Assembly: GCF_009905375.1 (NCBI RefSeq) | Contig: NC_133656.1 | Coordinates: forward strand, 239,042,415 to 239,106,414 | Reading direction: 5' to 3' | Length of the DNA: 64,000 nt | Source of the DNA: Apium graveolens | Taxonomy: Eukaryota; Streptophyta; Magnoliopsida; Apiales; Apiaceae | Part shown: one piece after another, positions 6,872 through 57,104 of the stretch | How positions within the stretch are numbered: position 1 is the first letter of the stretch | Layout: each line of letters opens with the position of its first letter | Program-made: the position numbers and the translations under genes | Notes under the pieces: model-generated | Told to the model about the DNA's origin: nothing | The model's input: the letters and a program-made list of their open reading frames with translations, nothing else | Databases searched by the model: none

Positions 6872-8550
6872 TCTTTCGACGGATAATCCTTTTGATTATT
6901 CGACGGATAACTTTCACCATCCGTCGAGTACACATCTGTTGAAAGTCCTTCAACCAAGTTGGAATCAAGCTTCTCTTTATTCTTTTTCCAGGCTGCATCA
7001 CAAAAAGACTCTATACCTTGAACTTTAGAGATTTGAGCATGGACATCTCTAGATGATTTCCATGCCTTAATCACATCCAGTTCTCGTTCAAGTTGCTTTC
7101 TTAAAATCTCCTCTTTCTTTAAGGATTCTGTTAGTTCATCCTTAGCAACCTTGCATTCTAATTTCAATTTTTCAAACTCAATGAATCAAGTCTTTAGCAC
7201 ATTATTCCTCTCACTTAAAAACACATTGTTCCCCTTAATTTTACTGTTTTCTTTGGAGAGAGACTTAAGAGTACCACACAGGTGATATAGTTCAGTAGAC
7301 ATGTCATTTATTGCATCATTACACTCAGCTTTAGATAAATGTTGTAGGTTAGTTATGATTACCTGATTGCTTGATGAACTGGATCTCTGTTCCATCTGAT
7401 TTGGCCATTAGGGCTAGGTTGATATAGCTTGTTTCTTCATCTTCATCCAATCCATCTGCAGCCCAGTCATTCTCCTGTGTGATGAAAGCCCTTTCCTTTT
7501 GTTTGAGCAGCTCAAAATATTTTTGCTTGTAATCAACAGGCTCAAACTTCTTTTTACCAGAATCAGGCTTTCTACATTCACTGGCAAAATGACATGCCAA
7601 GCCACATTTGAAACACTTAAATTTTGATTTATCAACCATGTTTCTGTTTGGCTTAGCTGCTCCAAAATTTTTCTTGAATTTGAGCTTGGAAAATCTCCTG
7701 GATAAGAATGCTAGATGCTCATCTATATCATCCATGTCATCTTGGCTTAACTGTTCTTCATTTTCAGCTACCAGCCCTCTACCCTTGCTCTCACAAACCT
7801 TTGAGTTTGATGCAGATTCCACAGCTTCAACATTCATCTCCTTTCTTTCTCTAGCCCAGCAACTAGTGCAATGGATCTTCTTTTCTTCCTTCCTTTCTCC
7901 ATCCTTTCATCTTGCTCTATTTCAAGCTCATAGGTCTTTAGAATTCCATACAGTCTTTCTAAGGTGAATTCCTTGTAATCTTGAGAGTTTCTTAAAGAGA
8001 CTGTCATGGGCTTCCATCCCCTTGGAAGATATCTAAGGAATTTAAGGTTTGAGTCTTTTGTTTGATAGACCCTTCCATGCAACTTGAGAGCATTCAGTAG
8101 TTTTTAAAATCTACTAAAAATATCAGTGAGTGATTCACTTTCTTCACAGTGAAAATGCTCATATTGCTGAATCAAGAGTTGCATCTTGTTCTCCCTGACT
8201 TGCTCAGTACCATCATAAATAATTTGAATTGTGTCCCAAACCTCTTTAGTTGTTTTACAGTTTATGATGTTGTCAAACATATCACCATCAACACCATTAA
8301 ACAATATGTTCATGGCCTTCTTATCTTTCCTGACTTGTTCAATGTCTAGATCGGACCACTCATGCCTAGGCTTTGGAACTGATGGTTCATTACCTGTAGC
8401 AGCTCTCATAGGGACATGAGGACCTCTTTCAATGCAGTCCACATAAGCTTCATCTTGAGAGAGAAGATGTAGGTGCATCTTCACCTTCCAGTGGTGATAG
8501 TTTTCTTTGTCCATAAATGAAATTTTCACTCCAACATCCTTTTTGTTCAT
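6872..8550 (-). pseudogene. SIRE-A gag, frameshifted and 3'-truncated
   Basis: Capsid/nucleocapsid precursor of a Sirevirus. Open pieces run 8550-8104 (start MNKKDVGVK, copia-type gag core), 8082-7834, 7837-7349 (CCHC knuckle CFKCGLACHFASEC) and 7395-6872 (coiled-coil region with TELYHL and AWKSSRDV). Frames change twice and stops intervene, so it is dead. The coiled-coil part shows that this copy keeps the segment missing from SIRE-C. At 7362 the sequence reads CAG|GTAATC, the counterpart of the proposed splice donor in SIRE-B. The last codons encode STD/YPS repeats made from the CGACGGAT motif (about 6940-6876). Truncation at 6872 is by Gypsy-1. Confidence 0.85.
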
Positions 8551-12575: not shown

Positions 12576-13336
12576 TGTTAGGAATATATTGTGAACTTGA
12601 TGATAAATTGAACAAAATACCTTAGTAGATTTAACTAAGTATTTTTGTAGCTCTCGATGGATGTTCTACAATAGTCCCGACGGATGAACGTTATAGTCTC
12701 GACGGATGATCACTAAACATCCATCGAGAGTGTAGCTTATGTAATAATAAGTCTTGTAGCACATTCCTGCAAACAACAATGTATTAGTAGATGTTGTAGG
12801 ATTCTTTAAGTCATGTTAACTACTTGATTGATATGCAGAATAGGTTGGCTCATTGTGAATATAAAATATCTTGTAATTCTGTATAAGTGAAATAGAGTCA
12901 AGTGACAGAAAGGCTCCCGACGGATGATCTACAAAGGCTCCCGACAGATAATCAACAAGGCTCCCGACGGATGATCAACATAGTCCCGACGGATGATCAT
13001 AATTCAAAAGAGCAGTTGACAGTGACAACACAGTCACATACGTCGGGTGTTTACAAAAGGAATGTGGCATCCTAATTGCAGGATTTAGAGAACAAATAAG
13101 CATTACCATTTCCATGTAATTATGAAGATATTCAAAGATGTTGGATAGAGTAATGAAGTAGCATGAAATTAAACCAGAAGCAATTTTTGTTTTACTTATT
13201 TGTCTTTTTATCATGTAACTTGGTAGTAAATAAACCAAGTGTAACAAGTAGAACAAAACAACTAAATAAGCATTACTTTCAGAGAGATAGAAAAAGTTGT
13301 ATCTATTAAGCATCTCTCTGTAATTCTGTAAGTTTT
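12576..13336 (+). repeat. Truncated plus-strand LTR of SIRE-A type
   Basis: Starts TGTTAGGAATATATTGTG, as expected for the 5' edge of this LTR family, and follows the SIRE-A LTR (opposite strand) until it stops at the edge of SIRE-B at 13337. It contains eight repeat-motif copies, mostly CCCGACGGATGATC (12650-12995). The TATA region at about 13214 is mutated. No polypurine tract precedes it, so it is the start of a 5' LTR or of a solo LTR. The missing last part is not found on the far side of SIRE-B. Confidence 0.8.
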
Positions 13337-14398: not shown

Positions 14399-14413
14399 AT
14401 CTCCCCCTATTTA
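14399..14413 (-). other. Polypurine tract of SIRE-B
   Basis: The minus strand reads AAATAGGGGGAGATT immediately before the LTR start TGTTAGG. This is the expected plus-strand DNA primer site of a copia element. Confidence 0.85.
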
Positions 14414-14587
14414 TGTCTATAAGAATTGTAGGCATAAATTCAGGGTTAACTTGATGATAACAAAACACTTAACAAATATATGAACTGAAACTAAGTAGAA
14501 ATTTTAAAAGTGCTGCAAAAGTGTATGTACTAGAAGGTAATTGAAGATTTACAGTGTTTTCAAGGGTGCTCCTCTAGCCTGAGCAAA

Positions 14588-17500: not shown

Positions 17501-19114
17501 TGAATCTGTGTGGATTCATTTGAGATTTGGTGACACAGATCCTTCAATTACATCTGAAAGAATTTGCGGGTGATCCAACAAATCATCTAAAAGATGATGA
17601 TCACCTGTATTTGAGTGGGGCTCCTCCCTGAGTTGTAAAGAGGGAGAATCAGGAATTGATGGGAATAACATATCCACATCCAGAGATGGTGATGAAGTGT
17701 GTGGTGATTGATGTGTGTTTATTGTGAGAGAATGGGGCTGTGACTCCACATTTGGTGGAGCCACATCAAACTGAGTTTGAGAAGGCATAGATACAGATGG
17801 ATGTATCTGTGCAGTGTGTGCACCCTGTGTAGAAGATTGGGTTCTAGCCCTCTTTCTTCTAATAAAAGCTTTTGTTGGTGAGTGTTTGGCTTCAGTGTCC
17901 CTCCCTCGTTTGTTCTGTGTTCCTGGTTGGGAACTATTTTCAATAGTTACATCCTTTTGGGAGGATGCAGCTAGGGATGTGCTAGAGACCTTTTCAACCA
18001 CCACAGCTTTTTGAGAAACTGTGGCTTGGCTAGCTTGGGAAGCACTTATCTCTCCTTCCTTATCCTGGGGGTTTCTTTGATGTTCACCCCTCCCCTCACC
18101 ACTCACACCCTGTTCACTCCCCTCAGGGTTAATGGTAGGTGTTACAACTGTTGTCTTTTGAGAAACAACAGAGGTGGTTTTCTTTGTTTTTGATTTTGAA
18201 AGTTTAGTTTTGGTGACCTGGGTAGAAATCTGTTGGGGCATTGTCACAGATTCCATGGCCACACTAGAAGATAAAGAAATAGAGGGGTTGGAAGAAGTAG
18301 GAGTTGTAGAAGCAATTACCTCACTTACCTGAGGTGCATTCATGATTGGTAAATATACCAATGGCACACTGCTGTTGAGATCCATTCTCAATAAATCTGC
18401 AAGAACTCTTTTCTCTTGTGCCCAGCACTTGAGTTTATTATTCTCATTGGTTATGACCAAACCTTCAGCAACATGGTTAGCCAATAACATAAAGAATCTA
18501 GCATAATAGATGTTATTAGGTCTATTAGCTTTGTTACCTAATCTAGTACCCAATTCTAGCATAACATAGTTGCTAAAATTAAAATACCTATCAGAAACAA
18601 GCATATAGAGCATATTAACAAGAGATGAAGTTATGGCATCAAAATTACTAATTTTTCCAGAAAAAACCTTGATAAAGGCATCTCCAAGAAAACTCCATTC
18701 TTTCCTAAGGCCTTTTCTTTTAATATTCCCTAAACTAGCAGAGTTAAGAGAATAACCTATGGAATCTAACATGCTTGATACATCATTATCAGTGTGTGGT
18801 GTCATGGCATTGTTCTCAGGTAATTTAAAACATGCTTGTAAATCATCACAGTTAACACAGTGATTTTTACCTTTGAGAGTGAAGGAGATAGTCATATCTA
18901 TGGAGTTGAACTCAGCAGTTGTCCAGATCTCCTCGACTACTTCACAGTAAATCGTTGGGGCTTCCAGCATTGCATAGCTAAGTTTACAGTTTTTGATGAA
19001 GTCCATCATTTTGTGATAATCTGAGTGGGCTTCATTCTTTGCTACCAAGGCTATGAAATTGTTCTTCTCATAGATAAACCCAGATTGAGACATAATCTTT
19101 ACTACTGGTGCCAT
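14588..19114 (-). pseudogene. Env-position third ORF of SIRE-B, interrupted
   Basis: Sireviruses often carry an extra ORF between pol and the 3' LTR, called env-like; its function is unproven. I take the start at 19114 (MAPVVKIMSQSG) rather than the upstream ATG at 19270, because the upstream stretch contains a TATA box and looks untranslated. The first open part is 532 codons, to TGA at 17518-17516. The same frame continues to TAG at 16597-16595 and on to TAA at 15851. Frame changes then lead through 15714-15088 and 15052-14588. Residues 1 to about 250 look globular and helical. A Ser/Thr/Gln/Pro-rich stretch follows, then Lys/Glu-rich coiled-coil-like regions. There is no clear signal peptide or membrane anchor in the MAPVV form, so calling it an envelope is not supported by the sequence. 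The repeat motif encodes SSTD and YPLI copies near 17470-17340. Confidence 0.75.
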
Positions 19115-19223
19115 TGTTGTGAGTAGAAATTGCAGAGAATAACTTGAAGGTTTTGCAGAGAGAAAATGGTAAAAGCTTCGAAATTTCAAGAAAGCGTAAA
19201 GTAGAAATGAAAAATCAGAAGGG

Positions 19224-19582
19224 CTTATATACTTTCTCAAATTAAAAAGCATAAATAAAAGATTAAACAATAATTATATGTAAGTGAATTTCAGCCGTTT
19301 AAGAATAAACTGTAAGTATTCTAAAAACTACCTTTAAAACAAATACATACAGCTGTATGTATGAGTATCAATGGTTAAGAAAATAGAATCAACGGCTGTG
19401 AAACACCTGAATCGACTGATGTGACATTTCAACGGATAAAGTAAACTGTCATCCGTTGAAAGGCACTTCAGTTTTATCCGTTGATGGATAAAAATTCCAG
19501 AAATGTATATGTCTTTCAACGGATAATGAACATCCGTTGACAGAACAATTTTGACTTTCAACAAATAGGAAATATCCGTTGA
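19224..19582 (-). promoter_or_regulatory. Candidate internal promoter before the env-position ORF of SIRE-B
   Basis: On the minus strand a TATATAAG box (19231-19224) lies 110 bases before the ATG at 19114. Between 19582 and 19429 are six exact copies of ATCCGTTGA/TCAACGGAT in both orientations, the nearest about 200 bases upstream of the TATA box. The LTRs have the same layout: motif array, about 239 bases, then TATATAAA. An 80-base untranslated leader would result. Promoter activity is inferred, not shown. A 76-codon frame here (19564-19334) is made largely of the repeats and is not a gene. Confidence 0.5.
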
Positions 19583-19668
19583 TGGAATAATCTGTGTTAA
19601 AAGTTAAATTTGTTCTATCAACTAATACATTTCAGGCTTCAATTCAAATTGCAATATGGACATGAATT

Positions 19669-22600
19669 TTAAGAGTAATTAAGCATACCTAGCTCACTTA
19701 CCAATCTTGTGAATGTTGATTCATCAAGTGGCTTGGTAAATATGTCTACAATTTGTTGTTCACTTGGAACAAAATGTAGTTCCACTGTACCATTCATGAC
19801 ATGCTCCCTAATGAAGTGGTACTTGATATCAATGTGCTTGGTCCTTGAGTGCTGCACAGGATTCTCTGTTATGGCTATGGCACTTGTGTTGTCACAAAAG
19901 ATAGGAATTCTGTCAACATGAAGTCCATAATCAAGGAGTTGATTCCTCATCCATAACACTTGAGAGCAGCAATGTATTCAGCCTCAGCTGTAGAAGTAGA
20001 GACTGAATTTTGCTTTTTGCTAAACCATGATACAAGCTTGTTTCCCAGGAATTGGCATGAGCCTGTTGTACTTTTCCTGTCTATTTTGCAACCTGCATAG
20101 TCTGCATCTGAATAACCAATTAGATCAAAGCCAGATTCTCTAGGATACCAAATACCTAAATTTGGTGTACCCTTGAGATATCTGAAAATCCTCTTGATAA
20201 CAATTAAGTGAGACTCCCTAGGATCAGCTTGAAATCTAGCACACAGACATGTAGCAAACGTTATATCTGGTCTGCTAGCAGTTAAATATAAAAGTGAACC
20301 AACCATGCCTCTGTAACTTGTAATGTCCACAGACCTTTCAGTCTTATTTAATTCAAGTTTGGTGGCAGTGGCCATGGGAGTTTTTGCAAATGAACATTCC
20401 ATTAAGTCAAACTTCTTTAAAAGATCATGAATATATTTAGTTTGACTAATGAAAATTCCATCACTAACTTGTTTAACTTGTAAACCAAGAAAATAGGTTA
20501 GTTCTCCCATCAGGCTCATTTCATAATTACTTTGCATTAGCTTAGCAAACTTTTTGCAAAGTTTATTATCTTTAGAACCAAATATTATGTCATCTACATA
20601 AATTTGAACAAGTATACTAGAGCCATTAATATTCCTAAAGAAGAGAGTTTTATCAACAGTACCTCTAGTGAAGTGATTCTCCAAAAGGAATTTTGATAAG
20701 GTTTCATACCAGGCTCTAGGTGCTTGCTTCAGTCCATAGAGTGCTTTCAACAAATAATACACATAGTCTGGAAAATTTGGATCTTCAAATCCTGGAGGTT
20801 GACTTACATAGACTTCTTCCTCTAATTTCCCATTCAGAAATGCACTCTTGACATCCATTTGATAGACTTTGAAATTGGCATGGGCTGCATAGGCTAGAAA
20901 AATTCTGATGGCTTCAAGTCTTGCAACAGGAGCATATGTCTCATCAAAATCTATTCCTTCTTGTTGAGAATAGCCTTTAGCAACCAATCTGGCTTTATTC
21001 CTTATGACAATGCCATTTTCATCCATCTTGTTTCTGAATACCCATTTTGTGTCAATAGGACTCTTGTTCTTTGGTTTGGGTACCAGCTTCCAAACTTTGT
21101 TTCTCTCAAATTGATTCAGCTCTTCCTGCATAGCTAATATCCAATCTGGATCCATTAAAGCTTCTTCCACTTTCTTAGGTTCCTCCTGAGATAGAAAACT
21201 ACTATACAGACATTCATCTTGAGTAGCTCTTCTTGTTTGCACTTTAGATGATACATCACCAATGATCAGTTCAAAGGGATGATTCTTGGTCCATTTCCTT
21301 TGAGGTGGAAGATGTGCTCTAGATGAGGTGGCCTCAGTATTGTCATGATGTGAGACAGAGTGTTGATTAGTTGAAACTCCCCCTGAGTTGTTGGTCCTTT
21401 GCAGGGAACTTGGAGTTCTATCAACTGATGATGTAAATCGATTATCCGTTGATAAACTATGATCAACGGATGCTTCATTTTGTACTTCAACGGATGATGC
21501 ACTATGTCTTTCAACGGATACTGCATTGCCTCTATCAACGGATGCAGAATTCTGACTTTCAACGGATGCAGTATTTTGTGCATTATCCAAGGGCATGTTT
21601 TGAATCCCTTTTGAAGTGTCATCTCCATCAGTCTCCTCTTCACTATCATCACAATATATCTCAATGTTGTCAAATTTGAGTCTCTCATGATGTCCCTCAT
21701 CTGTTAGTCCATCAATCTTTTTATCATCAAACACAACATGCACAGATTCCATAACAATGTTGGTTCTTAGATTGTAGACCCTATAAGATTTTCCAGCTGA
21801 GTAACCAACAAATATCCCTTCATCAGCCTTTGCATCAAACTTCCCTTTATGGTCAGATTGATTTCTCAGTATAAAACATTTACATCCAAAGACATGAAGA
21901 AAGTTTAGAGTTGGTTTTCTTCCCTTGAACAACTGATAAGGAGTCATGCCTTTAGCTCGATTGATCAAAGAAATATTCTGAGTGAAACAGGCACAATTAA
22001 CAGCTTCAGCCCAGAAATATGTTGGTAACTTTGATTCTTCAAGCATTGTTCTGGCGGCCTCAATTAAAGATCTGTTCTTTCTTTCAACTACCCCATTTTG
22101 CTGAGGTGTTCTTGGAGCTGAGAACTCATGCATGATTCCATTTTCTTCACAGAACAGCATCATTGATAAATTCTTGAACTCAGTTCCATTGTCACTCCTG
22201 ATATTCCTAACCTTCAAGTCAGGATGATTATTGACTTGCCTGATGTGATTGATAATGATTTCACTTGCTTCATCCTTTGATCCAAGAAAATAGACCCATG
22301 AAAACTTTGAGAAATCATCTACAATCACTAAGCAATATCTTTTTCTTGCAATTGACAATACATTGACTGGTCCAAACAAATCCATATGTAGCAGCTGTAA
22401 TGGTTCATCAATTGTTGTTTCAAGCTTCTTTTTTAATGATGCTTTCCTTTGTTTGCCTTTCTGACAAGCATCACACAAACCATCTTTGAGAATTCAACAA
22501 GAGGAATTCCTCTGACTAAGTCCTTTTTGACTAGATCATTCATTGTCTTGAAATTCAAATGGGATAGCTTCTTGTGCCATAGCCAACTCTCAACTGAACT

Positions 22601-22999
22601 TGCTTTGCTGAAGAGACAAGTAATAAATTCTGCATCTGTAGAGTTGAAGTCAGCTAAGTACACATTTCCTTTTCTAACTTCAGTTAGAACCACTTTGTTG
22701 TCTTTCTTGCTGGTGACAACACAGGCTTCAGAATTGAAGGAAACTGTATTCCCTCTATCACATAGTTGACTGATGCTCAGTAAGTTGTGCTTGAGACCAT
22801 CAACTAATGCAACTTCATCAATGATGACATTCCTTGTTGAAATCAAGCCATATCCCATAGTAAACCCTTTGCTGTCATCTCCAAAGGTTATTCTAGGGCC
22901 AGCTCTCTCCTTAAACTCTGTGAGCAAGGTGAAATCTCCTGTCATGTGTCTTGAATAGCCACTGTCCAAGTACCATAGATTTCTTCTTTTTCCCTGCAC
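19669..22999 (-). pseudogene. SIRE-B pol (protease, integrase, RT, RNase H) with two frameshifts
   Basis: Copia-type Pol in the order PR-IN-RT-RH. The first piece (22999-22433) has the protease LDSG site, with Tyr where SIRE-C has Cys just after it, and the integrase zinc-finger His pair. A 1-base deletion near 22484 breaks the frame within the zinc finger. The second piece (22478-19947) carries IN (MDLFGP, SDNGTEF and the following Glu), a low-complexity linker with SVE/SVD repeats written by the 9-bp motif (about 21570-21425), RT with YVDD and RNase H. A 13-base deletion near 19960, seen against SIRE-C, shifts the frame again. RNase H ends in 19959-19669. Pol lies in a different frame from gag. 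A TGCAG|GG splice-acceptor-like site is at 22995/22993. Confidence 0.92.
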
Positions 23000-24212
23000 A
23001 CCACCAAATCAATCAAGTTGATTTTGGTACCCAAGTTTCCTTGGGTCCATTCTTGTTAGCCTTTCTCCTAGACTTCATTCCTCCTGCATCTTTAGACTTA
23101 GGTAACTTTGAGTCAACCTTGGTCTTAGATGTAGTTGGTTGAGGTGTAGGGTTAGTCACAGAATCATTTAACACATTTGGAATATGATAAGGCATGGATT
23201 GTGCAAACATGTTATTCCACATAGGCATATTGTATGGCATTTGAGGCATACTAAATGGAGCAAGATAAGGATTGTTAAAATATGGCATGTTTGCAAAATG
23301 TGCATAAGGATTCTGTTGAGACATAACAGGCATAGCATGCAGAGGTGATGCAGACATATTAGGCATGGAAGAGGGTACAGGCATGGGAATTTTCTTAATA
23401 GATTTGCAATTAGCAGATAGATGATTAACACTACTACAATGCGCACAGCTTTTTCTAGGAGCATACTTGTCAGGTGTGTAATTGTTATGTTTGTTAACCC
23501 CTACCTTCCCATTTCTATTGGATTTCCTTTTAGTTTCCTTTTTATCCTCAACCACTTTGAGCCTATTCTTTAACTGTTCTAAGGTCATGTGCCCTATATT
23601 CACCTTACTGACATCTTTGGATGTGCTTGCTTCTTCTTTGACAAAGTTCTTGGAAGTTGAACCAAACTTTTTGTTGAGTTTCTTTAGATTTCCACTTTTA
23701 GAAACATCTGCCTGTTTTAATTGAGGAACCTTCAACGGATGCTCCTTTTCTTCCTTCAACGGATAACTTTCATCATCCGTTGATTCCACATCCGTTGACA
23801 GCCCATCAATTAATTCCAGTTTCTTTTTGTTTTTATCCCAGGCAGTCTCACAGAATGATTCAATTCCTTGGACCTTGGCAAATTGAGCACTAACATCCCT
23901 AGATGTCTTCCAGGCTTTAATCACCTCTTGCTCTCTCTTTAATTGATTAGAAAGTATTTCTACTTTCTTAACAGATTCAGCTAGTTCATTTTCAACAGAT
24001 ATACAATGCAGCTTAGTTTTCTCTAGGTCAATCAACTTATCTTCTAACACAGCATTTCTATCACTTAAAAACAGATTGTTCTCTTTAATCCTACTATTTT
24101 CTTTAGCAAGAGATTTAAGAGACACACGCAAATGATACAATTCAGTAGACATATCATTAAAAGCATCATTGCACTCTTCTTTAGTAAGCTGTGTTACATC
24201 AGTAGTAATTAC
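22994..24212 (-). other. Putative 1219-nt GT-AG intron across the gag C-terminus and gag-pol junction of SIRE-B
   Basis: The minus strand shows CAG|GTAATT at 24213/24212 and GTGTGCAG|GGA at 22994/22993. Joining the flanks puts gag residue 405 directly in the protease frame and removes the coiled coil, the second zinc cluster, the gag stop codon and the frame change. SIRE-C has exactly this join (54038/54039). A TTGAT branch-point-like sequence and a T/G-rich stretch precede the acceptor, as in many plant introns. SIRE-A keeps the donor (CAG|GTAATC at 7362). Splicing itself is inferred. Confidence 0.7.
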
Positions 24213-25427
24213 CTGGCTGCTTGATGAACTAGCTTCATTTTCCTCAAAATCAGCCATGAGAGCTAAGTTGACATATTCCACATCTTCATCCTCTTCTTCT
24301 CCATCAGCTGCCCAGTCTTTCTCTTGAGTAATGAAAGCCCTCACCTTTTGCTTGAGCAGATCAAAATATTTCTTTTTGTAATCTACTTGGTCAAATTTCT
24401 TCTTTTCAGAAGTTGGCTTTCTGCACTCACTTGCAAAGTGTCCACTTGTACCACAATTGTAACACTTGAACTTGGATTTGTCCACCATGTTCTTATGAGG
24501 TTTAGTGGCTCTAGTGTTTTTCCTAAATTTCATCTTTGCAAATCTCCTGGACAGAAATGCAAGATGCTCATCAATACTATCAGAGTCATCTTGACTGGAG
24601 TTGTCTTCATTCTCAGGAACTTGCTCTTTACCCTTGCTTGATTCCTGATTTCTTATACCATCTTTGGAGTTTGATGTAGATCTCACAGTTTCTTGTCTGC
24701 ATTCTCTCTCATTTTCAGCTACCAATGCAACTGAACCTCCTTTCTTTCTCCCCTTCTCCAATACCTCATCCTGTTCCAGCTCTAGTTCATAAGTCTTCAA
24801 GATTCCATATAATCTTTCAAGAGTGAAGTCCTTATAATCTTGAGAGTTTCTCAAGAAGACAGTCATGGGTTTCCATTCCTTTGGCAAGGATCTTAAGAAT
24901 TTAAGATTTGAATCCTTCACCTGGTACATTCTACCATACAACTTCAGTCCATTCAACAGCTTTTGGAATCTGTTGAATGTGTCATTTAAAGATTCATTTT
25001 CTTTAAAATGGAAATACTCATACTGTTGAATGAGAAGCTGCATTTTGTTCTCTTTTACTTGTTCTGTACCTTCACACAGTAGCTGAACTGTGTCCCAAAC
25101 CTCTTTGGCAGTTGTGCAATTTATCACATTATCAAACATATCCTTGTCAAGACCATTAAACAAAATGTTCATAGCCTTCTTATCCTTGTGGACTTCTTCT
25201 GTGTCTTCCATAGTCCATTCTGCTCTCGGTTTTGGAATGGATTGACCAACAGCAATTGTGGCCGTAGCAACTATGGCTACTTTGTGGGGAATGTGAGGAC
25301 CATTCTCAATGCAGTTTACATAACCTTCATCTTGGGAGAGTAGATGAATGTGCATTTTCACCATCCAGTGGTGATAACTGTCTTTGTCAAGAACTGGGAT
25401 TTTTACTCCAATATCCTTCTTACTCAT
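23013..25427 (-). CDS. gag: SIRE-B Gag, 804 codons, long Sirevirus type
   Basis: Structural precursor of the virus-like particle, open over its whole length. Residues 1-210 form the copia gag core (start [19 protein letters not shown] and LLIQQYEYF segments). Residues 322-335 are a CCHC knuckle ([14 protein letters not shown]). Residues 415-510 are coiled-coil-like. Residues 542-566 hold STD/YPL/HPL repeats encoded by the 9-bp motif (23810-23733). Residues 661-674 form a second Cys/His cluster (CAHCSSVNHLSANC). The tail is Met/Pro/Asn-rich. Sirevirus Gag proteins are known for such C-terminal extensions. The frame ends at a TGA 13 bases before pol begins in another frame. Bases 24212-22994 of this gene and its junction to pol behave like an intron, absent from SIRE-C. 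Confidence 0.9.
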   Translation of the reverse strand: MSKKDIGVKIPVLDKDSYHHWMVKMHIHLLSQDEGYVNCIENGPHIPHKVAIVATATIAVGQSIPKPRAEWTMEDTEEVHKDKKAMNILFNGLDKDMFDNVINCTTAKEVWDTVQLLCEGTEQVKENKMQLLIQQYEYFHFKENESLNDTFNRFQKLLNGLKLYGRMYQVKDSNLKFLRSLPKEWKPMTVFLRNSQDYKDFTLERLYGILKTYELELEQDEVLEKGRKKGGSVALVAENERECRQETVRSTSNSKDGIRNQESSKGKEQVPENEDNSSQDDSDSIDEHLAFLSRRFAKMKFRKNTRATKPHKNMVDKSKFKCYNCGTSGHFASECRKPTSEKKKFDQVDYKKKYFDLLKQKVRAFITQEKDWAADGEEEDEDVEYVNLALMADFEENEASSSSSQVITTDVTQLTKEECNDAFNDMSTELYHLRVSLKSLAKENSRIKENNLFLSDRNAVLEDKLIDLEKTKLHCISVENELAESVKKVEILSNQLKREQEVIKAWKTSRDVSAQFAKVQGIESFCETAWDKNKKKLELIDGLSTDVESTDDESYPLKEEKEHPLKVPQLKQADVSKSGNLKKLNKKFGSTSKNFVKEEASTSKDVSKVNIGHMTLEQLKNRLKVVEDKKETKRKSNRNGKVGVNKHNNYTPDKYAPRKSCAHCSSVNHLSANCKSIKKIPMPVPSSMPNMSASPLHAMPVMSQQNPYAHFANMPYFNNPYLAPFSMPQMPYNMPMWNNMFAQSMPYHIPNVLNDSVTNPTPQPTTSKTKVDSKLPKSKDAGGMKSRRKANKNGPKETWVPKST

Positions 25428-25474
25428 CTTTGTTAGTTTCCAAGATCTTTAAACTCTTTGTTTGTCAAGAGCTT

Positions 25475-25486
25475 GCTCTGATACCA
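25475..25486 (-). other. Primer-binding site of SIRE-B (initiator tRNA-Met)
   Basis: The plus strand reads GCTCTGATACCA, two bases from the 5' LTR edge at 25489. Confidence 0.92.
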
Positions 25487-25488
25487 AT

Positions 25489-26547
25489 TGTTATTCCTAG
25501 TGGACTAACAATGAGATTTACAGAAGGGGGGGTTGAATGTAAATCTCAAAACTTTTTCAAGTTTTGAGCAGTTTGAAAGGCTATGTGTTCAAGATAAACA
25601 AGTGTGTGAATTGCTTTAAGCTAATACAGACAGATATATATTCAAACACTAATGTAAAGAACACAACAGACCTTAAAAACTTTTCTGGTGGATTGTTGTT
25701 CCACCAGAGATGGTATTTCAGAAAATCTGTGATTCAAGAAGTTGATCACAGCTGCGTCCTAGTACAAACTAGATAATTTTTCTCTCAGGATTTTTCTAAA
25801 CAGCTCTGAAAAAATTCTTATCTAATTACTAGCTGCTACTTGGTTTATATATCACCAAGTTTACAAGTGAAGACAAGGATAAAAATACAATAATAAAATA
25901 AGTTCTCCACTTGTTTTTACTCCAGTTCACTCCAATACATTGTTGACTATTGCCTCTTTATACTAGAGTAGAACGGCTGCTTTTTCTGATGTTCCTGAAA
26001 TTAGGCTGCCACATCTCAGTTGTCTCTGTTAACCCATGTGCATTTGTCTGCAGTTACAACTACCACTTATCAACTGCTATTTAACAGATCATCCGTTGAA
26101 GCCTTCATCCGTTGATGGATTTATCCGTTGATGTGTTAGCAGTTGAAGCTCTATCCGTTGATGCACTCATCCGTTGAAGGATGTTATCCGTTGAAGCTTT
26201 AGAGACATCCGTTGAAGCTTTGTTTCTCATCCGTTGAAGGTCTTTAAGTTATCCGTTGACACCACTTCATTTATACAAATTAACAAGGCATGAAATATTT
26301 ACAATTGGCCTTCCTATCTGCATATCCTCTAGTAGTCAACATGACTTATAATTTCCCTCAACTTCTAAGAATAATATCTCAAATTCAGAGACTGAAATAT
26401 GCTACAACACTAGACTTATTTCTAAGTAAAGCTACACCATCAACGGATAGCCAAAGTGGTCTTATCCGTTGAGGCTACAAACACTAGATTTCTACTTAAG
26501 TGTTTTGTTAAACATATCATCAAACTAATGCACATATATTCCTAACA
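25489..26547 (-). repeat. 5' LTR of SIRE-B
   Basis: TGTTATTCC at 25489 to CCTAACA at 26547, 1059 bp, matching the 3' LTR with scattered substitutions and small indels. TATA box at 25844-25851. Nine exact ATCCGTTGA copies lie at 26091-26259, upstream of the TATA box by about 240 bp, and an inverted pair is at 26440-26472. The right flank is the Copia-2 pol tail. Confidence 0.93.
26091..26259 (-). promoter_or_regulatory. ATCCGTTGA motif array in the SIRE-B 5' LTR
   Basis: Nine exact copies of ATCCGTTGA plus one decayed copy in 169 bp, mostly followed by AG or TG and spaced irregularly (about 13 to 25 bases). The same arrays are at 13942-14110 in the 3' LTR and at 52004-52159 in SIRE-C. Conserved repeated motifs in LTRs have been described for Sireviruses as a group. 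A role in transcription control is inferred from the position upstream of the TATA box. Confidence 0.75.
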
Positions 26548-48804: not shown

Positions 48805-51715
48805 TTGATAACAACTGTAGAGTCCAAGAAACGTAAAACGGATGATAATATGGGCTTTGAGAATCAAGTGGGCCTCAACAATGAAGTAACATTGGACGCT
48901 GAGGATGATATAAACATGACTACTGATCAAGTAAGCCCAAATAATTTTATGGATTCAAAAAACGGACCAGAGGCGGGTACCCAGGGTGGTGCTCGCCTAG
49001 CATTATGAGTATTGTAAGTTGGAATTTCCATGGGCTTGGGACCCTGTGGGCGTTACAATTCCTAAAGGAGGTTGTGCTCCAAAAGAAGCCCAGTTATGTT
49101 TTTTTATGTGAAACGCTTTGCAGAAAAGGAATAGTGGAAAGAGTAAGATCATCTTTAGGTTTTGAAGGGACGATTGTAGTGAAAGCCATAGGTCACAGTG
49201 GTGGTATTGCTTTATTATGGCGTAATAAGGATGCAGTTAGTTTGTGTTCGTTCAGTAAAAATCATATTGACGGGATTGTCACTACTCCAGAAGGTGTAAA
49301 GTATAGACTCACAGGGGTATATGGTGAACCAGATAGATCAAAGCGTCATGAGACATGGAGTTTGATAAGGAGTTTGGCTAGTCACAATACTCTCCCGTGA
49401 TGTCTAATCGGGGATATGAACAATGTTCTTTCTCAGAGGGATAAAAGAGGTGGTAGGCCATATCCTAATCGGTTGTTACAGGGGTTCCAAGAGGTTCTTA
49501 ATGACTGTGATCTGGTAGATATGAATCTGTGTGGGTATCAGTATACTTGGGAGCGTGGTTTTGGTACGAGTAATCATATTGAGGTACGTCTTGATCGGGC
49601 ACTTGTCAGTCCTGATTTTTTGAACTTGTTTAAGGATGCTAAGCTCACTAATTTGGAAGTGTCAACTTCCGATCATTGTCCGATTTTGCTGGAACCACAA
49701 GTGTGTAATATATTCTTCCGTGATAGACCGTTTCGTTTTGAAAATGCCTGGCTCAGGGAGCCTATGTGCTATCAATTAGTTGAGGATGCTTGGAGCAATA
49801 ATGTGGGTTCTTTTTATGATAAGCTGTCTTTTGTTTCTGAGATATTATTAGCTTGGGGTAAGGAAATCATGGGCAATTTCAAGGGGCGTATTAGTAAAAG
49901 TAAGAGGATTTTACAGGCGTTGAGAGGTCGAAGGGATGATCATTCAGTAAAAGTGGTTCAGGAGGAGAAGAATAAGCTGTCAGAAATTTACGCTCAGCAA
50001 GAGGTCTTTTGGCGACAGCGGTCAAAACAGTTATGGCTTCGTGAAGGGGACCAGAACAGTAAATTCTTCCATGTCGCAACGAAGAATAGAAGGAAAACAA
50101 ATCATATAAGCCATTTGCAGGATATTCAAAGGAATAAAGTGGAATGGGGTAACGGTATTGAAAAGACTATAGAGGATTATTTTGCCCAGTTATTCACAGC
50201 TTCGGTTACATATTGGGAAAGGGTGACTGGTTGTGTTTCTAGTAGAGTCAATGTTGTTCAAAATGAAATGCTGTGTGCAGAAGTGGATGAAAAAGAAGTT
50301 AAAGCAGCTCTTTTCAACATGCATCCAGACAAGTCACCGGGTTCAGACGGTATGACTCCGGGTTTTTATCAGAAGTGTTGGAATATTGTCAAATCAGATG
50401 TAGTCTCAATAGTGCAAGGCTTCTTTGTGAATGGAAAGATGGATGAGCAGCTTAGATATACGAATATAACGTTGATTCCTAAAAGCCAAATCCAGTGCTC
50501 ATGACGGATCTCCGTCCCATTTCTCTTTGTAACATTGTTTACAAAATTATTTCCAAGGTTTTAGCAAACAGATTGAAAAAGATTATTGATTTAATAATCT
50601 CTGATTCACAGAGCGCCTTCATTCCTGGCAGACTTATTACTGACAATAAAATGGTTGCTTTCGAGGTTATGCATTATATGAAACGAAAGACAAAAGGAAA
50701 AGAGAGTTGGATGGCTTTAAAGTTGGATATGTCCAAAGCCTATGATCGTGTCGAGTGGAATTTTTTACAAGCAATGTTGTTGAAGATGGGGTTTGATCAG
50801 AGAGTTGTTAATTTGTTCATGGGATGTATCACCTCTGCAAGGTATAGTTTTTCTCATGCTGGTAGAATTTTTGGGAATATTATTCCTGAAAGGGGCCTAA
50901 GACAGGGAGACCCCCTATCATCGTACTTGTTCTTAATATTTATTGAAGGTTTGACAGCTTTGTTACATGATTTTGAAAGGCGTAATCTGATCAAAGGAAT
51001 AAAAGTTGCTAGGACGGCGCCTTCTATTTCTCACATGTTTTTTGCTGATGATTCTTATGTGTTTTGCAAAGCCAATATGGAAAGTGCTGATCATGTCTTG
51101 CAATTGTTGAAAATTTTCGAAAGAGCTTCAGGGCAACAAATAAATGTTGATAAATCCTCAGTGTTTTTCAGTAAGAATTCTTCCTGTTCTCTGAAGAGAG
51201 AGCTTTGTCAGAAGCTCAGATTTAAGGAGGCCAATGATCAGTGTATGTACTTAGGTTTGCCTAATATAATAGGAAGAAATAAGTCATCAATCTTTGGTTT
51301 TCTGAAGGACAAGATGCAAGATCGTATTCAGGGTTGAGATAAGAATTTTATGTCAAAAGGAGGCAAAGAAGTGTTGTTGAAGACTGTGGCCCAAACACTT
51401 CTGAACTATGCTATGAGTGTTTTTTTATTGCCTTTGGACTTGTGTCAGCAGTTGGAGAATTTGATGTGTAAGTTTTGGTGAAAAAATGATGCTAAGAAGG
51501 ATAGAGGTATTCACTGGAAGAGTTGGGGCAATATGTGCAAGAGGAAGGCTTCTGGGGGTATGGGTTTTAGAAGGGTTCGTGACTTCAATATAGCTCTTCT
51601 TGGTAATCAGGGATGGAGATTGTTGAAATATCCAGAAAAGTTGGTGAGTAGGGTTTATAAGGCTCGTTACTATCCTACAGGTTCTTTTATTAATGCTGAA
51701 ATCGGGCACAATCCT
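48805..51715 (+). mobile_element. L1-type LINE, 5'-truncated, 3' end cut by SIRE-C
   Basis: The last 67 codons of ORF1 (48805-49008) overlap the ATG of ORF2 at 49005 (ATGA). ORF2 has endonuclease and reverse transcriptase in the order of plant L1 elements. It ends abruptly at 51715, where the SIRE-C LTR begins. No poly(A) tail is visible because the 3' part is missing. 5' truncation is typical of LINE insertion. Confidence 0.9.
49005..51715 (+). pseudogene. LINE ORF2 (endonuclease and reverse transcriptase), interrupted
   Basis: The apurinic-type endonuclease starts VSWNFHGLG. Its frame is stopped once by TGA at 49398-49400, just before CLIGDMNN, where a Trp is usual, and continues in the same frame (49416 on) with LVDMNLCGYQYTW, RLDRAL and STSDHCPI. 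The RT part has PDKSPGSDGMTPGFY, and then a 1-base deletion near 50484 shifts the frame. RT continues at 50495 (DLRPISLCNIVYKI, KLDMSKAYDRVEW, RGLRQGDPLS, FFADD). A stop at 51335 and another at 51479 interrupt the later region. The last codons before SIRE-C (GSFINAEIGHNP) resemble the region upstream of the RNase H-like or zinc-binding tail. Confidence 0.9.
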
Positions 51716-52762
51716 TGTTAGGAATGTATGTGCATTAGTTTGATGATATGTTTAACAAAATACTTAAGTAGAAATTTAGTGTCTGTAGCCTCAACGGATA
51801 AGATCACTTTGGCTATCCGTTGATGGTGTAGCTTTACTTAGAAATAAGTCTAGTGTTGTAGCATATTTCAGTCTCTGTATTTAAAATGTAATTCTTGGAA
51901 GATGAGAGAAACTATGAGTCATGTTGACTACTAGATGATATGCAGATAGGAAGGCCAATTGTAAATACTTCATGCCTTGTAATTTTGTATAAGTGAAGTG
52001 GTATCAACGGATGACTTAAAGACCTTCAACGGATAAGAAGCTAAGCTTCAACGGATGTCTCTGAAGCTTCAACGGATAAAGTCATCAACGGATAACATCC
52101 TTCAACGGATGAAAGCTTCACATCCTTCAGTGCATCAACGGATGAAAGCTTCAACGGATGTTCTGATGATTAGCCGTTGATAAGGGGTAGTTGTACCTAC
52201 AAACAGAGGCACATGGGTTGATAGAGACAACTGAGATGTGGTAGCCGAATTTCAGGAACAACAGAAAAAGCAGCCGTTCTTCTTTAGTACAAAGATGCAA
52301 TAGTCAACAAAGTACTGGAGTGAACAGGAAAAGAAGCAAGTGAAGAACTTATTTTATTACTGTATTTTATATTGTTCTTAACTTGTACACTTGGTAATAT
52401 ATAAACCAAGTAGAAGCTAGTAATTAGATGTGAGATTTTCCAGAGCTGTTTAGAAAAATATTGAGAGAAAATCCATCTAGTTTGTACTAGGATGCAGCTG
52501 TGATCAACATTGTTTAATCACAGGTTTTCTAAAATACCATCTCTGGTGGAACAACAAATCCACCAGAAAAGTTTTTAAGTTCTGTTGTGTTCTTTACATT
52601 TGTGCTTGAATTTATATCTGTCTGTATTAGCTTAAAGCAATTCACACACTTGTTGTTCTTGAACACACAACTTTCATAAACTGCTCAAAACTTGAAAAAG
52701 TTTTGAGATTTACATTCAACCCCCCTTCTGTAAATCTCATTGTTAGTCCACCAGGAATAACA
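51716..52762 (+). repeat. 5' LTR of SIRE-C (1047 bp)
   Basis: TGTTAGGAATG at 51716 to GGAATAACA at 52762. An inverted motif pair (TCAACGGATA 51791-51800, TATCCGTTGA 51814-51823) is near its start. Eight exact TCAACGGAT copies lie at 52004-52159, then after 239 bases the TATATAAA box (52398-52405) inside CTTGGT...ACCAAG. Confidence 0.93.
52398..52405 (+). promoter_or_regulatory. TATA box of the SIRE-C LTR
   Basis: TATATAAA, framed by CTTGGT (52390-52395) and ACCAAG. The same framed box is at 13696-13703 and 25844-25851 in SIRE-B (minus) and near 8974-8994 in SIRE-A. Confidence 0.75.
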
Positions 52763-52764
52763 AT

Positions 52765-52823: not shown

Positions 52824-55800
52824 ATGAGTAAGAAGGATATTGGAGTAAAGATCCCAGTTCTTGACAAAGACAATTATCACCATTGGAAGGTGAAAATGCA
52901 CCTTCATCTACTCTCCCAAGATGAAGGTTATGTAAACTGCATTGAGAGTGGTCCTCACATTCCCCATAAAGTAGCAACAGTTGCTACAGCCACAGTTGCT
53001 GTTGGTCAATCCATTCCAAAACCTAGAGCAGAATGGACAATGGAAGACACAGAAGAAGTCCACAAGGATAAGAAGGCTATGAACATTTTGTTTAATGGTC
53101 TTAACATGGATATGTTTGATAATGTGATAAATTGCACAACTGCCAAAGAGGTTTGGGACACAGTTCAACTACTGTGTGAAGGTACAGAACAAGTGAAAGA
53201 AAACAAAATGCAGCTTCTCATTCAACAGTATGAATACTTTCATTTTGAAGAAAATGAATCTTTAAATGAAACATTCAATAGGTTCCAAAAGCTGTTGAAT
53301 GGACTGAAGCTGTATGGAAGAGTGTACCAGGTGAAGGATTCAAATCTTAAATTTTTAAGATCCTTGCCAAAGGAATGGAAACCCATGACTGTCTCCTTAA
53401 GAAACTCTCAAGATTATAAGGACTTCACTCTTGAAAGATTGTATGGAATCTTGAAGACTTATGAACTAGAGCTGGAACAGGATGAGGTATTGGAGAAGGG
53501 GAGAAAGAAAGGAAGTTCAGTTGCATTGGTAGCTGAAGATGAGAGGAAATGCAGACAAGAAACTGCAAGATCTACATCAAACTCCAAAGATGGTATAAGA
53601 AATCAGGAATCAAGCAAGGGGAAGGAGCAAGTTGCTGAAAATGAAGACAACTCCAGCCAAGATGACTCAGATGGTATTGATGAGCATCTTGCATTTCTGT
53701 CCAGAAGATTTGCAAAGATGAAATTCAAGAAAAACACTAGAGCCACTAAACCTCACAAAAACACTGTGGACAAATCCAAGTTCAAGTGTTTCAATTGTGG
53801 TATAAGTGGACACTTTGCAAGTGAGTGCAGAAAGCCAACTTCTGAAAAGAAGAAATTTGAACAAGTAGATTACAAAAAGAAATATTTTGATCTACTCAAG
53901 CAAAAGGAGAGGGCTTTCATTACTCAAGAAAGGGACTGGGCAACTAATGGAGATGAAGAGGATGAAGATGTGGAGTATGTCAACCTTGCTCTCATGGCTG
54001 ATTCTGAAGAAAATGAAGTTAGTTCATCAAGCAATCAGGGAAATGGAAGAAATCTATGGTACTTGGACAGTGGTTGTTCAAGACACATGACAGGAGATTT
54101 CTCCCTGCTCACAGAGTTCAAGGAGAGAGCTGGCCCTAGCATAACCTTTGGAGATGACAGCAAAGGGTTTACTATGGGATATGGCTTGATTTCAACAAGG
54201 AATGTCATCATTAATGAAGTTGCATTAGTTGATGGTCTCAAGCACAATTTACTGAGCATCAGTCAACTATGTGATAGAGGAAATACAGTTTCCTTCAATT
54301 CTGAAGCCTGTGTTGTCACCAGTAAGAAAGACAACAAAGTGGTTCTAACTGGAGTTAGAAAAGGAAATGTGTACATAGCTGACTTCAACTCTACAGATGC
54401 AGAATCCATTACTTGTCTCTTCAGCAAAGCAAGCGCAGTTGAAAGTTGGCTATGGCACAAGAAGCTATCCCACTTGAATTTCAAGACAATGAATGATCTA
54501 GTCAAAAAGGACTTAGTCAGAGGAATCCCTCTAGTTGAATTCTCAAGGGATGGTTTGTGTGATGCTTGTCAGAAAGGCAAACAAAGGAAATCATCATTCA
54601 AAAAGAAGCTTGAAACAACAATTGATGAACCATTACAGCTGCTACATATGGATTTGTTTGGACCAGTCAATGTATTGTCCATTGCAAGAAAAAGATATTG
54701 CTTAGTGATTGTAGATGATTTCTCAAAGTTCTCATGGGTCTATTTTCTTGGATCAAAGGATGAAGCAAGTGAAATCATTATCAATCACATCAGGCAAGTC
54801 AACAATCATCCTGACTTGAAGGTTAGAAATATCAGGAGTGACAATGGAACTGAGTTCAAGAATTTAACATTAAGGCTGTTCTGTGAAGAAAATGGAATCA
54901 TACATGAGTTCTCAGCTCCAAGAACACCTCAGCAAAATGGGGTTGTTGAAAGAAAGAACAGATCTTTAATTGAAGCTGCCAGAACAATGCTTGAAGAATC
55001 AAAGTTACCAACATATTTCTGGGCTGAAGCTGTTAATTGTGCCTGCTTCACTCAGAATATTTCTTTGATCAATCAAGCTAAAGGCATGACTCCTTATCAG
55101 TTGTTCAAGAGAAGAAAACCAACTCTAAACTTTCTTCATGTCTTTGGATGTAAATGCTTTATACTGAGGAATCAATCTGACCATAAAGGGAAGTTTGATG
55201 CAAAGGCTGATGAAGGGATATTTGTTGGTTACTCAGCTGGAAAATCTTATAGGGTCTACAATCTAAGAACCAACATTGTTATGGAATCTGTGCATGTTGT
55301 GTTTGATGATAAAAAGATTGATGGACTAACAGATGAGGGACATAATGAGAGACTCAAATTTGACAACATTGAGATATATTGTGATGATAGTGAAGAGGAG
55401 ACTGATGGAGATGACACTTCAAAAGGGATTCAAAACATGCCCTTGGATAATGCACAAAATAATGCAGTATCTGTTGAAAGACACAGTGCATCATCCGTTG
55501 AAGTACAAAATGAAGCATCCGTTGATCATAGTTCATCAACGGATAATCGATTTACATCATCAGTTGATAGAACTCCAAGTTCCCTGCAAAGGACCAACAA
55601 CACAGGGGGAGTTTCAACTAGTCAACACTCTGTCTCACATCATGACAATACTGAGGCCACCTCATCTAGAGCACATCTTCCACCACAAAGGAAATGGACC
55701 AAGAATCATCCCTTTGAACTGATCATTGGTGATGCATCATCTAAAGTGCAAACAAGAAAAGCCACTCAAGATGAATGTCTGTATAGCAGTTTTCTGTCTC

Positions 55801-57104
55801 AGGAGGAACCTAAGAAAGTGGAAGAAGCTCTATTGGATCCAGATTGGATATTAGCTATGCAGGAAGAGCTGAACCAATTTGAGAGAAACCAAGTATGGAA
55901 GCTGGTACCCAAACCAAAGAACAAGAGTCCTATTGACACAAAGTGGGTATTCAGAAACAAGATGGATGAAAATGGCATTATCATAAGGAATAAAGCCAGA
56001 CTGGTTGCTAAAGGCTATTCTCAGCAAGAGGGAATAGATTTTGATGAAACATATGCTCCTGTTGCAAGACTTGAAGCCATCAGAATATTTCTAGCCCATG
56101 CAGCCCATGCCAATTTCAAAGTCTATCAAATGGATGTCAAGAGTGCATTTCTAAATGGGAAATTAGAGGAAGAAGTTTATGTAAGTCAACCTCCAGGATT
56201 TGAAGATCCAAATTTTCCAGACTATGTGTATTATCTGTTGAAAGCACTCTATGGACTGAAGCAAGCACCTAGAGCCTGGTATGAAACCTTATCAAAATTT
56301 CTTTTGGAGAATCACTTCACTAGAGGTACTGTTGATAAAACTCTCTTCTTTAGGGATGTTAATGGCTCTAGTATACTTGTTCAAATTTATGTAGACGACA
56401 TAATATTTGGTTCTAAAGATGATAAACTTTGCAAAAAGTTTGCTAAGCTAATGCAAAGTAACTATGAAATGAGCCTAATGGGAGAACTAACCTATTTTCT
56501 TGGTTTACAAGTTAAACAAGTTAGTGATGGAATTTTCATTAGTCAAACTAAATATATTTATGATCTTTTAAAGAAGTTTGACTTAATGGAATGTTCATCT
56601 GCAAAAACTCCCATGGCCACTGCCACCAAACTTGAATTAAATAAGACTGAAAGGTCTGTGGACATTACAAGTTATAGAGGCATGGTTGGTTCACTTTTAT
56701 ATTTAACTGCTAGCAGACCAGATATAATGTTTGCTACATGTCTATGTGCTAGATTCCAAGCTGATCCAAGGGAGTCTCACTTAATTGCTATCAAAAGGAT
56801 TTTCAGATATCTCAAGGGTACACCAAACTTAGGTATTTGGTATCCTAGAGAATCTGGCTTTGATCTAATTGGTTATTCAGATGCAGACTATGCAGGTTGC
56901 AAAATAGATAGGAAAAGTACAACAGGCTCCTGTCAATTCCTGGGAAACAAGCTTGTATCATGGTTTAGCAAAAAGCAAAATTCAGTCTCTACTTCTACAG
57001 CTGAGGCTGAATACATTGCTGCTGGAAGTTGCTGTTCTCAAGTGTTATGGATGAGGAACCAACTCCTTGACTATGGACTTCATGTTGATAGAATTCCTAT
57101 GTAA
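52824..57104 (+). CDS. SIRE-C Gag-Pol fusion, one open frame, cut off within RNase H
   Basis: Open for 1426 codons, with true copia sequence up to 57099; the last codons (57100-57104) come from the Gypsy-2 LTR. Start chosen at MSKKDIGVK, the Gag start conserved in all three Sireviruses here. Gag core residues 1-210; CCHC knuckle 322-335 ([14 protein letters not shown]). At residue 405/406 (54038/54039) Gag joins protease directly, active site LDSG at about 414-417. Integrase: zinc ligands H545, H550, C579, C582, catalytic D610, D673 and E709. A low-complexity linker (about 845-960) contains SVE/SVD repeats. RT has YVDD at 1189-1192; RNase H starts near 1350. All catalytic residues I looked for are present. 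Compared with SIRE-B it lacks about 400 Gag residues and about 15 linker residues. No stop or shift is seen before the truncation. Confidence 0.93.

What the first reader, a model, noticed from the sequence alone, without database searches (positions are those of the whole stretch)
22994..24212. SIRE-C looks like a reverse-transcribed spliced copy: a 1219-nt intron in gag that fuses Gag to Pol
Seen directly: SIRE-B (minus) has CAG|GTAATT at 24213/24212 in gag and TGCAG|GGA at 22994/22993 at the start of protease. SIRE-C (plus) joins the corresponding bases exactly (CAG|GGA at 54038/54039) and is open from gag to RNase H. In SIRE-B gag and protease are in different frames with a stop between them; removing 1219 nt (1 mod 3) corrects both. 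SIRE-A keeps the donor and the segment, so retention is probably ancestral. Inference: full-length RNA makes long Gag only, while spliced RNA makes a shorter Gag fused to Pol, giving a splicing-based Gag/Gag-Pol switch. Splicing in Ty1/copia is known to produce short gag RNA (Drosophila copia, Arabidopsis copia elements), but the reverse arrangement, gag tail removed to make Gag-Pol, I do not know as described for Sireviruses.
Basis: partly seen in the sequence, partly recalled or inferred. Interest (0 to 1): 0.9.

Follow-up and report, generated by a model that had tools for sequence, protein, structure and literature searches.

The report
Retrotransposon intron fuses Gag to Pol
A family of plant jumping genes appears to carry a hidden intron inside its coat-protein gene, so that unspliced RNA makes only the coat protein while spliced RNA makes the coat protein joined to the enzymes, which would answer how these elements make their enzymes at all.

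Summary
SIRE-C lacks the 1219 nt that SIRE-B has at 24212-22994, with GT-AG edges; apart from an LTR element inserted in C, the largest other indel is 45 nt. In SIRE-B the two sites are the best-scoring donor (1 of 153) and acceptor (1 of 262) of the region (weights recalled). The host genome holds 264 matches to a junction pattern with a 2-32-nt gap; 96 of the 100 listed have the same gap length. The intronless state is polyphyletic: one intronless copy is 99.1/99.8% identical to an intron-bearing copy, 93.2/95.5% to SIRE-C. Two other Sirevirus groups here, Gag 30-35% identical, keep a mid-gag donor, hairpin, gag stop and acceptor in the same order, phase 0 where read. The segment is coding and constrained. 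Best reading: full-length RNA makes long Gag; spliced RNA makes short Gag fused to Pol, a splicing answer to how Sireviruses with a separate pol frame express Pol. No RNA data were available; the number of intron-bearing copies was not obtained.

The parts
24213..25427 (-). SIRE-B exon 1: gag codons 1-405 with CCHC zinc knuckle, ends CAG (phase 0)
22994..24212 (-). SIRE-B retained intron (exitron-like): codes for the Gag tail including a second CCHC-like knuckle; GT...AG, 1219 nt
24207..24215 (-). 5' splice site CAG|GTAATT, best of 153 GT in the region
   Evidence: weights recalled
23026..23048 (-). Hairpin GGACCCAAG-GAAA-CTTGGGTaCC just before the gag stop; a similar stem-loop in two other Sirevirus groups
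23013..23015 (-). Stop codon (TGA) of long Gag, inside a YTNAY branch-point-like motif
   Evidence: motif by eye, consensus recalled
22991..23005 (-). 3' splice site ...TGGTGTGCAG|GGA, best of 262 AG in the region
   Evidence: weights recalled
19901..22993 (-). SIRE-B exon 2: pol (protease first), +1 frame relative to gag; this copy has a later frame break near 22485
52824..54038 (+). SIRE-C exon 1 (gag codons 1-405)
54038..54039 (+). SIRE-C exon-exon junction CAG|GGA, open reading frame through it
54039..57100 (+). SIRE-C exon 2 (pol), 95.1% to SIRE-B
51715..52764 (+). SIRE-C 5' LTR, 100% identical over 1050 nt to its 3' LTR beyond the window; target-site duplication ATCCT
7362..7363 (-). SIRE-A donor CAG|GTAATC, best of 73 GT; segment kept to about 6875, then truncated
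25488..26547 (-). SIRE-B 5' LTR (94.4% to its 3' LTR at 13336-14398)

Best explanation
These Sireviruses carry a spliceable intron that is also coding sequence. Unspliced RNA is translated into long Gag (about 800 aa) that stops just before pol. Splicing from a donor at the end of the zinc-knuckle part of gag to an acceptor at the first codon of pol removes the Gag tail, the gag stop and any frame difference, and gives short Gag fused in frame to protease and the rest of Pol. The ratio of the two RNAs would set the Gag to Gag-Pol ratio. Spliced RNA is sometimes packaged and reverse-transcribed, leaving intronless copies such as SIRE-C. Shown here: exact junctions, many copies, the intronless state in different sublineages, coding constraint, and the same site order in divergent groups. 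Inferred: that splicing happens in cells, that it is partial, and that its role is Pol expression.
For: Exact GT-AG edges and phase-0 fusion. 264 junction-pattern matches in the genome, reversed-pattern control 0 and 0; 96 of 100 listed have the same gap length, with several exon haplotypes. Intronless L038 is 99.1% (exon 1) and 99.8% (exon 2) identical to intron-bearing L029/L033 but 93.2/95.5% to SIRE-C; intronless L039 groups with intron-bearing L020/L032 (support 0.95 and 1.0). 7 of 7 sampled copies in which both ends could be read keep GT and AG at the corresponding places, in three groups; Gag aa identity to SIRE-B about 30-35% for the two distant groups. Same hairpin-stop-acceptor order in the three groups. 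Protein P0011, from a 2,987-nt ENA contig, carries the same junction at about 60% identity. Tail of A versus B dN/dS 0.125, gag 0.081, with dS saturated. The SIRE-C LTRs are identical, so at least this intronless copy inserted recently.
Against: No RNA evidence. The segment is not U-rich (27.2% T; gag 24.5%, pol 28.6%), unlike most plant introns. Family-2 and family-3 donors rank only 3-6 of 126-138 by recalled weights and were picked by eye. No intronless copy was seen for those two groups (0 of 5 read); the family-2 junction search did not complete and a family-3 one was not sent. 4 of the 100 listed matches differ in gap length, and the fixed anchors hide deletions with distant edges. Recombination between packaged RNAs could carry one intronless junction into other sublineages without new splicing; in L038 both flanks (440 nt each) follow the intron-bearing partner, which argues against it but does not exclude it. 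Some database proteins read long Gag straight into protease (P0003, a cluster of 67 member sequences named for Heracleum) or join earlier tail sequence to the start of exon 2, so other ways to Gag-Pol may exist; those named for NCBI plant genomes may be gene models.
Confidence: 0.86

Rival explanations
1. A DNA or reverse-transcription deletion between the two CAGG repeats, followed by amplification of that deleted lineage and spread by recombination; no splicing.
For: 4-nt direct repeat at the edges; intronless copies are numerous, so intronless elements do amplify.
Against: Intronless copies fall in different sublineages with the same junction, and a homologous junction is seen in P0011. The repeat is what any AG|GT...AG|G intron has. 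Edges coincide with the best-scoring donor and acceptor, and the sites recur in other groups.
Confidence: 0.06
2. Splicing is real but incidental: a cryptic intron occasionally removed, while Pol is normally made by bypass or internal ribosome entry at the conserved stem-loop, as proposed before for these elements.
For: A stem-loop at the gag/pol boundary is present in three groups, and recoding was proposed (background of PMC2829016, passages). No expression data here.
Against: Donor and acceptor recur in three groups with phase-0 fusion; in L016 (family 2) two in-frame stops lie between gag and pol, so readthrough would have to pass both. The strip between gag stop and acceptor reads like a 3' splice site.
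Confidence: 0.14
3. Spliced RNA is chiefly a way to make intronless, Gag-tail-less elements (a parasitic or mini lineage), not a Gag/Pol switch.
For: 264 intronless junction matches exist and SIRE-C is young.
Against: Tail coding is constrained between A and B and the 7 sampled copies read at both ends keep it; the sites occur in groups with no intronless copy seen.
Confidence: 0.12

Closest known systems
[quoted passage not shown]
   Same: Splicing of a subset of transcripts allows the whole polyprotein to be read (PMC6317226 section 13, read).
   Different: Other superfamily; the Ogre region lies between ORFs (274 bp on average) whereas here about 1.0-1.2 kb that includes the coding gag tail is removed, so Gag-Pol lacks the tail that long Gag has.
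BARE1 (104-nt intron), Arabidopsis EVD shGAG and Drosophila copia splicing
   Same: Ty1/copia; splicing sets Gag against Pol (PMC3735527 passages; PMC8892269 and PMC12786077 passages).
   Different: Opposite polarity: there the spliced RNA makes Gag only and the unspliced RNA makes Gag-Pol.
Sireviruses with pol in +1 frame and a conserved inverted repeat at the gag/pol boundary (Gao et al. 2003)
   Same: Same gag/pol organisation and a boundary hairpin; here pol is +1 in families 1 and 3.
   Different: Bypass or internal entry was proposed there (seen only as quoted in PMC2829016; the paper itself is not held); here splicing is proposed.
Exitrons (introns inside protein-coding exons)
   Same: Coding, constrained, internal to an ORF, spliceable by inference.
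   Different: Here in a retrotransposon, and removal joins two separate ORFs. Definition recalled, not read.

Membership tests
Sirevirus (SIRE clade, Ty1/copia) | Enlarged Gag with a central CCHC knuckle | tested here: met
   SIRE-B Gag is 804 aa and holds CYNCGTSGHFASEC (by eye); average Sirevirus Gag 660 aa in PMC2829016
Sirevirus (SIRE clade, Ty1/copia) | Downstream coiled coil in Gag | not tested
   No coiled-coil program was run
Sirevirus (SIRE clade, Ty1/copia) | Pol in a separate frame and inverted repeat at the gag/pol boundary (subset) | tested here: met
Sirevirus (SIRE clade, Ty1/copia) | Clade membership by RT/INT phylogeny | not tested
   No tree with named Sireviruses was made
Sirevirus (SIRE clade, Ty1/copia) | Long LTRs (mean 1.28 kb) and large element size | tested here: met
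   LTR 1.05-1.06 kb; SIRE-B spans 13336-26547
Ogre-type polyprotein splicing | Partial splicing joins the 5' and 3' ORFs of the polyprotein | tested here: inconclusive
   Genomic junctions show joining; RNA not tested
Ogre-type polyprotein splicing | Ty3/gypsy element with the intron between ORFs | tested here: not met
   The segment starts inside gag; database relatives carry PF14223 and PF13976, which I recall as Ty1/copia gag and GAG-pre-integrase domains
BARE1/EVD/copia-type shGAG splicing | Spliced RNA encodes Gag only | tested here: not met
   Judged from genomic intronless copies: SIRE-C and L038-L041 stay open from gag into protease across the junction
Exitron | Spliceable segment inside coding sequence under coding constraint | tested here: met
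   dN/dS 0.125 over 158 codons, A versus B (dS saturated, so the ratio is rough)
Exitron | Both RNA forms observed | not testable with these tools
   No RNA reads available

The most novel reading that the evidence does not exclude
A Gag/Gag-Pol splice switch is an ancestral property of the Sirevirus lineages that have a separate pol frame. The conserved stem-loop at the gag end, until now read as a translational recoding signal, would be part of the 3' splice-site region and tune how much Gag-Pol is made; short-Gag-Pol would lack the second knuckle that long Gag has.
Probability: 0.6. Interest if true: 0.88.

Novelty: new variant of a known kind. Interest (0 to 1): 0.8.

Why it matters
Sireviruses have extensively colonised grass genomes (start of the abstract of PMC3414828, search listing), yet how those with a separate pol frame make Pol was left open, with bypass or internal ribosome entry proposed (as quoted in PMC2829016). 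A constant donor and acceptor make the question testable with existing RNA reads. It would also be a Ty1/copia case with the polarity of splicing reversed from BARE1, EVD and copia, and it offers a natural record of spliced-RNA packaging: 264 intronless junction matches in one genome.

Tried and rejected
Viral-contig scan for relatives: 4 stretches matched a pattern, none encoded a relative. Composition as an intron test: not informative, because the segment is coding. A simple single-deletion lineage was judged unlikely. Gene models P0016 and P0034 show the same junction but may be annotation introns, so they are not counted as proof. A count of intron-bearing acceptors and the family-2 junction search did not complete; a family-3 junction search was planned but not sent. 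Three paper searches failed. PMC5009743 (passages) did not show its one Sirevirus mention; PMC5615361 (passages) had nothing on splicing of these elements.

Full report
What is in the window. Two closely related elements of the Sirevirus kind (Ty1/copia; named so from Gag and boundary features, no phylogeny made), SIRE-B (minus, LTRs 25488-26547 and 13336-14398) and SIRE-C (plus, 5' LTR 51715-52764), align over LTR and gag at 91.5%, over pol at 95.1% and over the 3' part at 91.8%. The one large difference inside the element sequence is SIRE-B 24212-22994, absent from SIRE-C; the next largest indel is 45 nt. Another LTR element is inserted in SIRE-C at 57100. The missing piece begins GTAATT and ends TGTGCAG; SIRE-C joins CAG to GGA exactly there. 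The more distant SIRE-A (71% to SIRE-B) has the donor and about 480 nt of the segment before it is truncated, so the segment is ancestral and SIRE-C lost it.

Frames. In SIRE-B, gag runs 405 codons to the donor, on through the segment, and stops (TGA, 23015-23013) just before the acceptor; protease starts in another frame, in phase 0 at the acceptor. The segment is 1219 nt, 1 mod 3. SIRE-C is open through the junction. The segment is coding sequence under constraint: between A and B, dN/dS is 0.125 over 158 tail codons against 0.081 over 390 gag codons, with codons holding gaps or stops left out and dS saturated (1.8 and 2.3), so the ratios are rough. It ends in GPKETWVPKST; of 39 database proteins whose ends were printed, 8 finish with WVPKST (P0025, P0027, P0029, P0031, P0038, P0044, P0048, P0053), many of the others being pieces or gene models.

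Splice sites. With donor and acceptor weights that I recalled for plants, the SIRE-B donor ranks 1 of 153 GT and the acceptor 1 of 262 AG in 3028 nt; the SIRE-A donor ranks 1 of 73. The segment is not U-rich, which is expected if it must also code.

Genome-wide junctions. The window lies in a 3.33-Gb assembly; the closest named protein relatives are from Apiaceae (Heracleum, Daucus, Apium). A pattern with fixed exon-1 and exon-2 anchors and 2-32 nt between them gave 264 places, and the reversed pattern 0 on both strands. The tool listed 100; 96 have the same gap length, hence the same junction. One is a base longer in exon 2, two keep 12 nt after the donor, and one joins CAG to AAATC further in. 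One of the 96 has CTAG in place of CCAG or TCAG before the junction. There are 19 different strings among the 100. The other 164 places were not seen, and the pattern cannot show deletions whose edges lie beyond the anchors.

Independent losses. Four intronless copies (L038-L041, 945 nt each) were read. L038 is 99.1% (exon 1, 440 nt) and 99.8% (exon 2, 440 nt) identical to an intron-bearing copy (L033/L029) but 93.2% and 95.5% to SIRE-C. L039 pairs with the intron-bearing L020/L032 (86.4 and 94.3%, support 0.95 and 1.0). L040 and L041 lie nearest SIRE-B among the intron-bearing copies by exon-1 identity (95.9 and 95.0%), with weak branch support. On these trees the loss happened at least three times (L038, L039, and at least once for SIRE-C and L040/L041), unless recombination between packaged RNAs carried one junction into other sublineages; the near-identity of L038 to its intron-bearing partner on both sides argues against that but does not exclude it. 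All four pieces are open across the junction.

Other Sirevirus groups. Of twenty 10-kb stretches from ten contigs, 9 held gag or protease matches by tblastn; three more stretches added one gag piece that ran off its end. In 7 copies both ends could be read: family 1 L020/L032 and L029/L033; family 2 L016, L024, L031; family 3 L012, L019/L034. All 7 keep the segment, and all 7 keep GT and AG at the corresponding places. Family 2 reads TTAAAG|GTACCT (ACAAAG|GTACCT in L016) ... TTGTGATTGCAG|GGCAAC (TTTTTGATTGCAG in L016); family 3 reads AAAGAG|GTAAAA ... TTTGTATTGCAG|GGCATT. Families 2 and 3 share about 30-35% aa identity with SIRE-B Gag. Donor and acceptor are phase 0 in the five copies translated (SIRE-B, L016, L024, L031, L012; L024 has a stop in exon 2) and, by alignment coordinates, in L020/L032 and L029/L033. 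Pol is +1 to gag in families 1 and 3; in L016 of family 2 it is in frame but behind two stops. Partial copies seen as well: L013 acceptor GCAG|AG, a second L020 copy with an altered acceptor (GAAG|GG), and an L028 donor with AAA in place of AAG before GT; no donor was found in the stretch for L013 or the second L020 copy. L024 and L031 carry other stops, so they are decayed copies. By recalled weights the family-2 and family-3 donors, picked by eye, rank 3-6 of 126-138 and the acceptors 1-2 of 72-258.

The hairpin. Just before the gag stop all three groups can form a stem-loop (GGACCC/GGGTCC type). In 8 copies folded, the 60-nt window gave z from -1.65 to -4.84 against single-base shuffles, with 0 to 8% of 300 shuffles at least as stable; L013 is the weakest and pairs differently in that window. 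For SIRE-B, 147 nt gave z -1.86 against dinucleotide shuffles, 8 of 200 at least as stable. [quoted passage not shown] 2003 as support for bypass (passages). Here it lies about 30 nt upstream of a 3' splice site, with branch-point-like motifs (CTAAC, CTAAT, TTGAT; by eye, consensus recalled) between the two or at the stop codon. Whether it acts on splicing is inference.

Outside this genome. P0011, from a 2,987-nt ENA contig, is a 472-aa protein that runs from Gag into protease through the homologous junction SSGQ|GAKKNLWYVDSG at about 60% identity. Whether that contig is genomic or cDNA I cannot tell. P0016 (Apium) and P0034 (Heracleum) show the same joint but may be gene models. Contrary items: P0003, a cluster of 67 member sequences named for Heracleum, reads long Gag straight into protease, and several Heracleum, Daucus and Apium proteins (P0001, P0002, P0006, P0010, P0013, P0014, P0015, P0017) join earlier tail sequence to the start of exon 2. 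So Gag-Pol may be reached in more than one way, or annotators chose other introns.

Mechanism. Most likely, unspliced RNA is genome and messenger for long Gag; a fraction is spliced to make short Gag-Pol; some spliced RNA is packaged and copied, giving intronless elements. SIRE-C's two LTRs are identical over 1050 nt with a 5-bp target-site duplication, so this intronless copy inserted recently. Intronless copies cannot make long Gag by the same route, so they may depend on intact relatives (inference).

Known work. BARE1 splices 104 nt and its spliced RNA makes Gag only (PMC3735527, passages). EVD makes shGAG by splicing (PMC8892269, passages). Sunflower elements Tyran and Varan make spliced short GAG isoforms (PMC7730604, passages). 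[quoted passage not shown] A December 2025 review names Ogre and EVADE among the intron-bearing exceptions, also cites BARE1, and holds no word beginning with 'sirevirus' (PMC12786077, passages and word count). My answered paper searches (open-licence PMC papers only) listed no title or abstract start that reports splicing to make Gag-Pol in a Sirevirus; most listed papers were not opened. Gao 2003 and Steinbauerova 2008 are not held.

Verdict. Observation confirmed; interpretation supported by exact, frame-correcting loss in different sublineages and by the same site order in divergent groups; unproven at the RNA level.

Noticed in passing
13336-14398, 25488-26547, 51715-52764, and coding parts 23733-23790, 21444-21560, 55493-55537, 17348-17453, 19430-19574: The 8-mer CAACGGAT (both strands) occurs 56 times in the window against 1.2 expected from composition: 10-11 per LTR and also in gag tail, pol and 3' ORFs. 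SIRE-A (6877-6919, 9219-9557) and a related LTR-like copy (12678-12987) carry CGACGGAT instead, in LTR and gag tail alike, as if the motif changed together.
   Followed up: partly
57100-61242 and onward: Another element is inserted in SIRE-C at 57100; its two terminal copies (4143 nt) are 99.98% identical, so it looks young too.
   Followed up: partly
13336 and 26547: No matching target-site duplication was seen at the outer ends of SIRE-B (GTGTG versus AAAAC), unlike SIRE-C.
   Followed up: no
G000 C3:10345869-10345925 and C4:131080428-131080484: Two copies keep 12 nt (GTAACAACTCAG) after the donor before the exon-2 start, perhaps an alternative splice site or a later deletion.
   Followed up: no
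14399-19900: A 5.5-kb 3' part with stop-to-stop ORFs of 225-585 aa between pol and the 3' LTR of SIRE-B, also present in SIRE-C at 91.8%; identity of these ORFs not examined.
   Followed up: no
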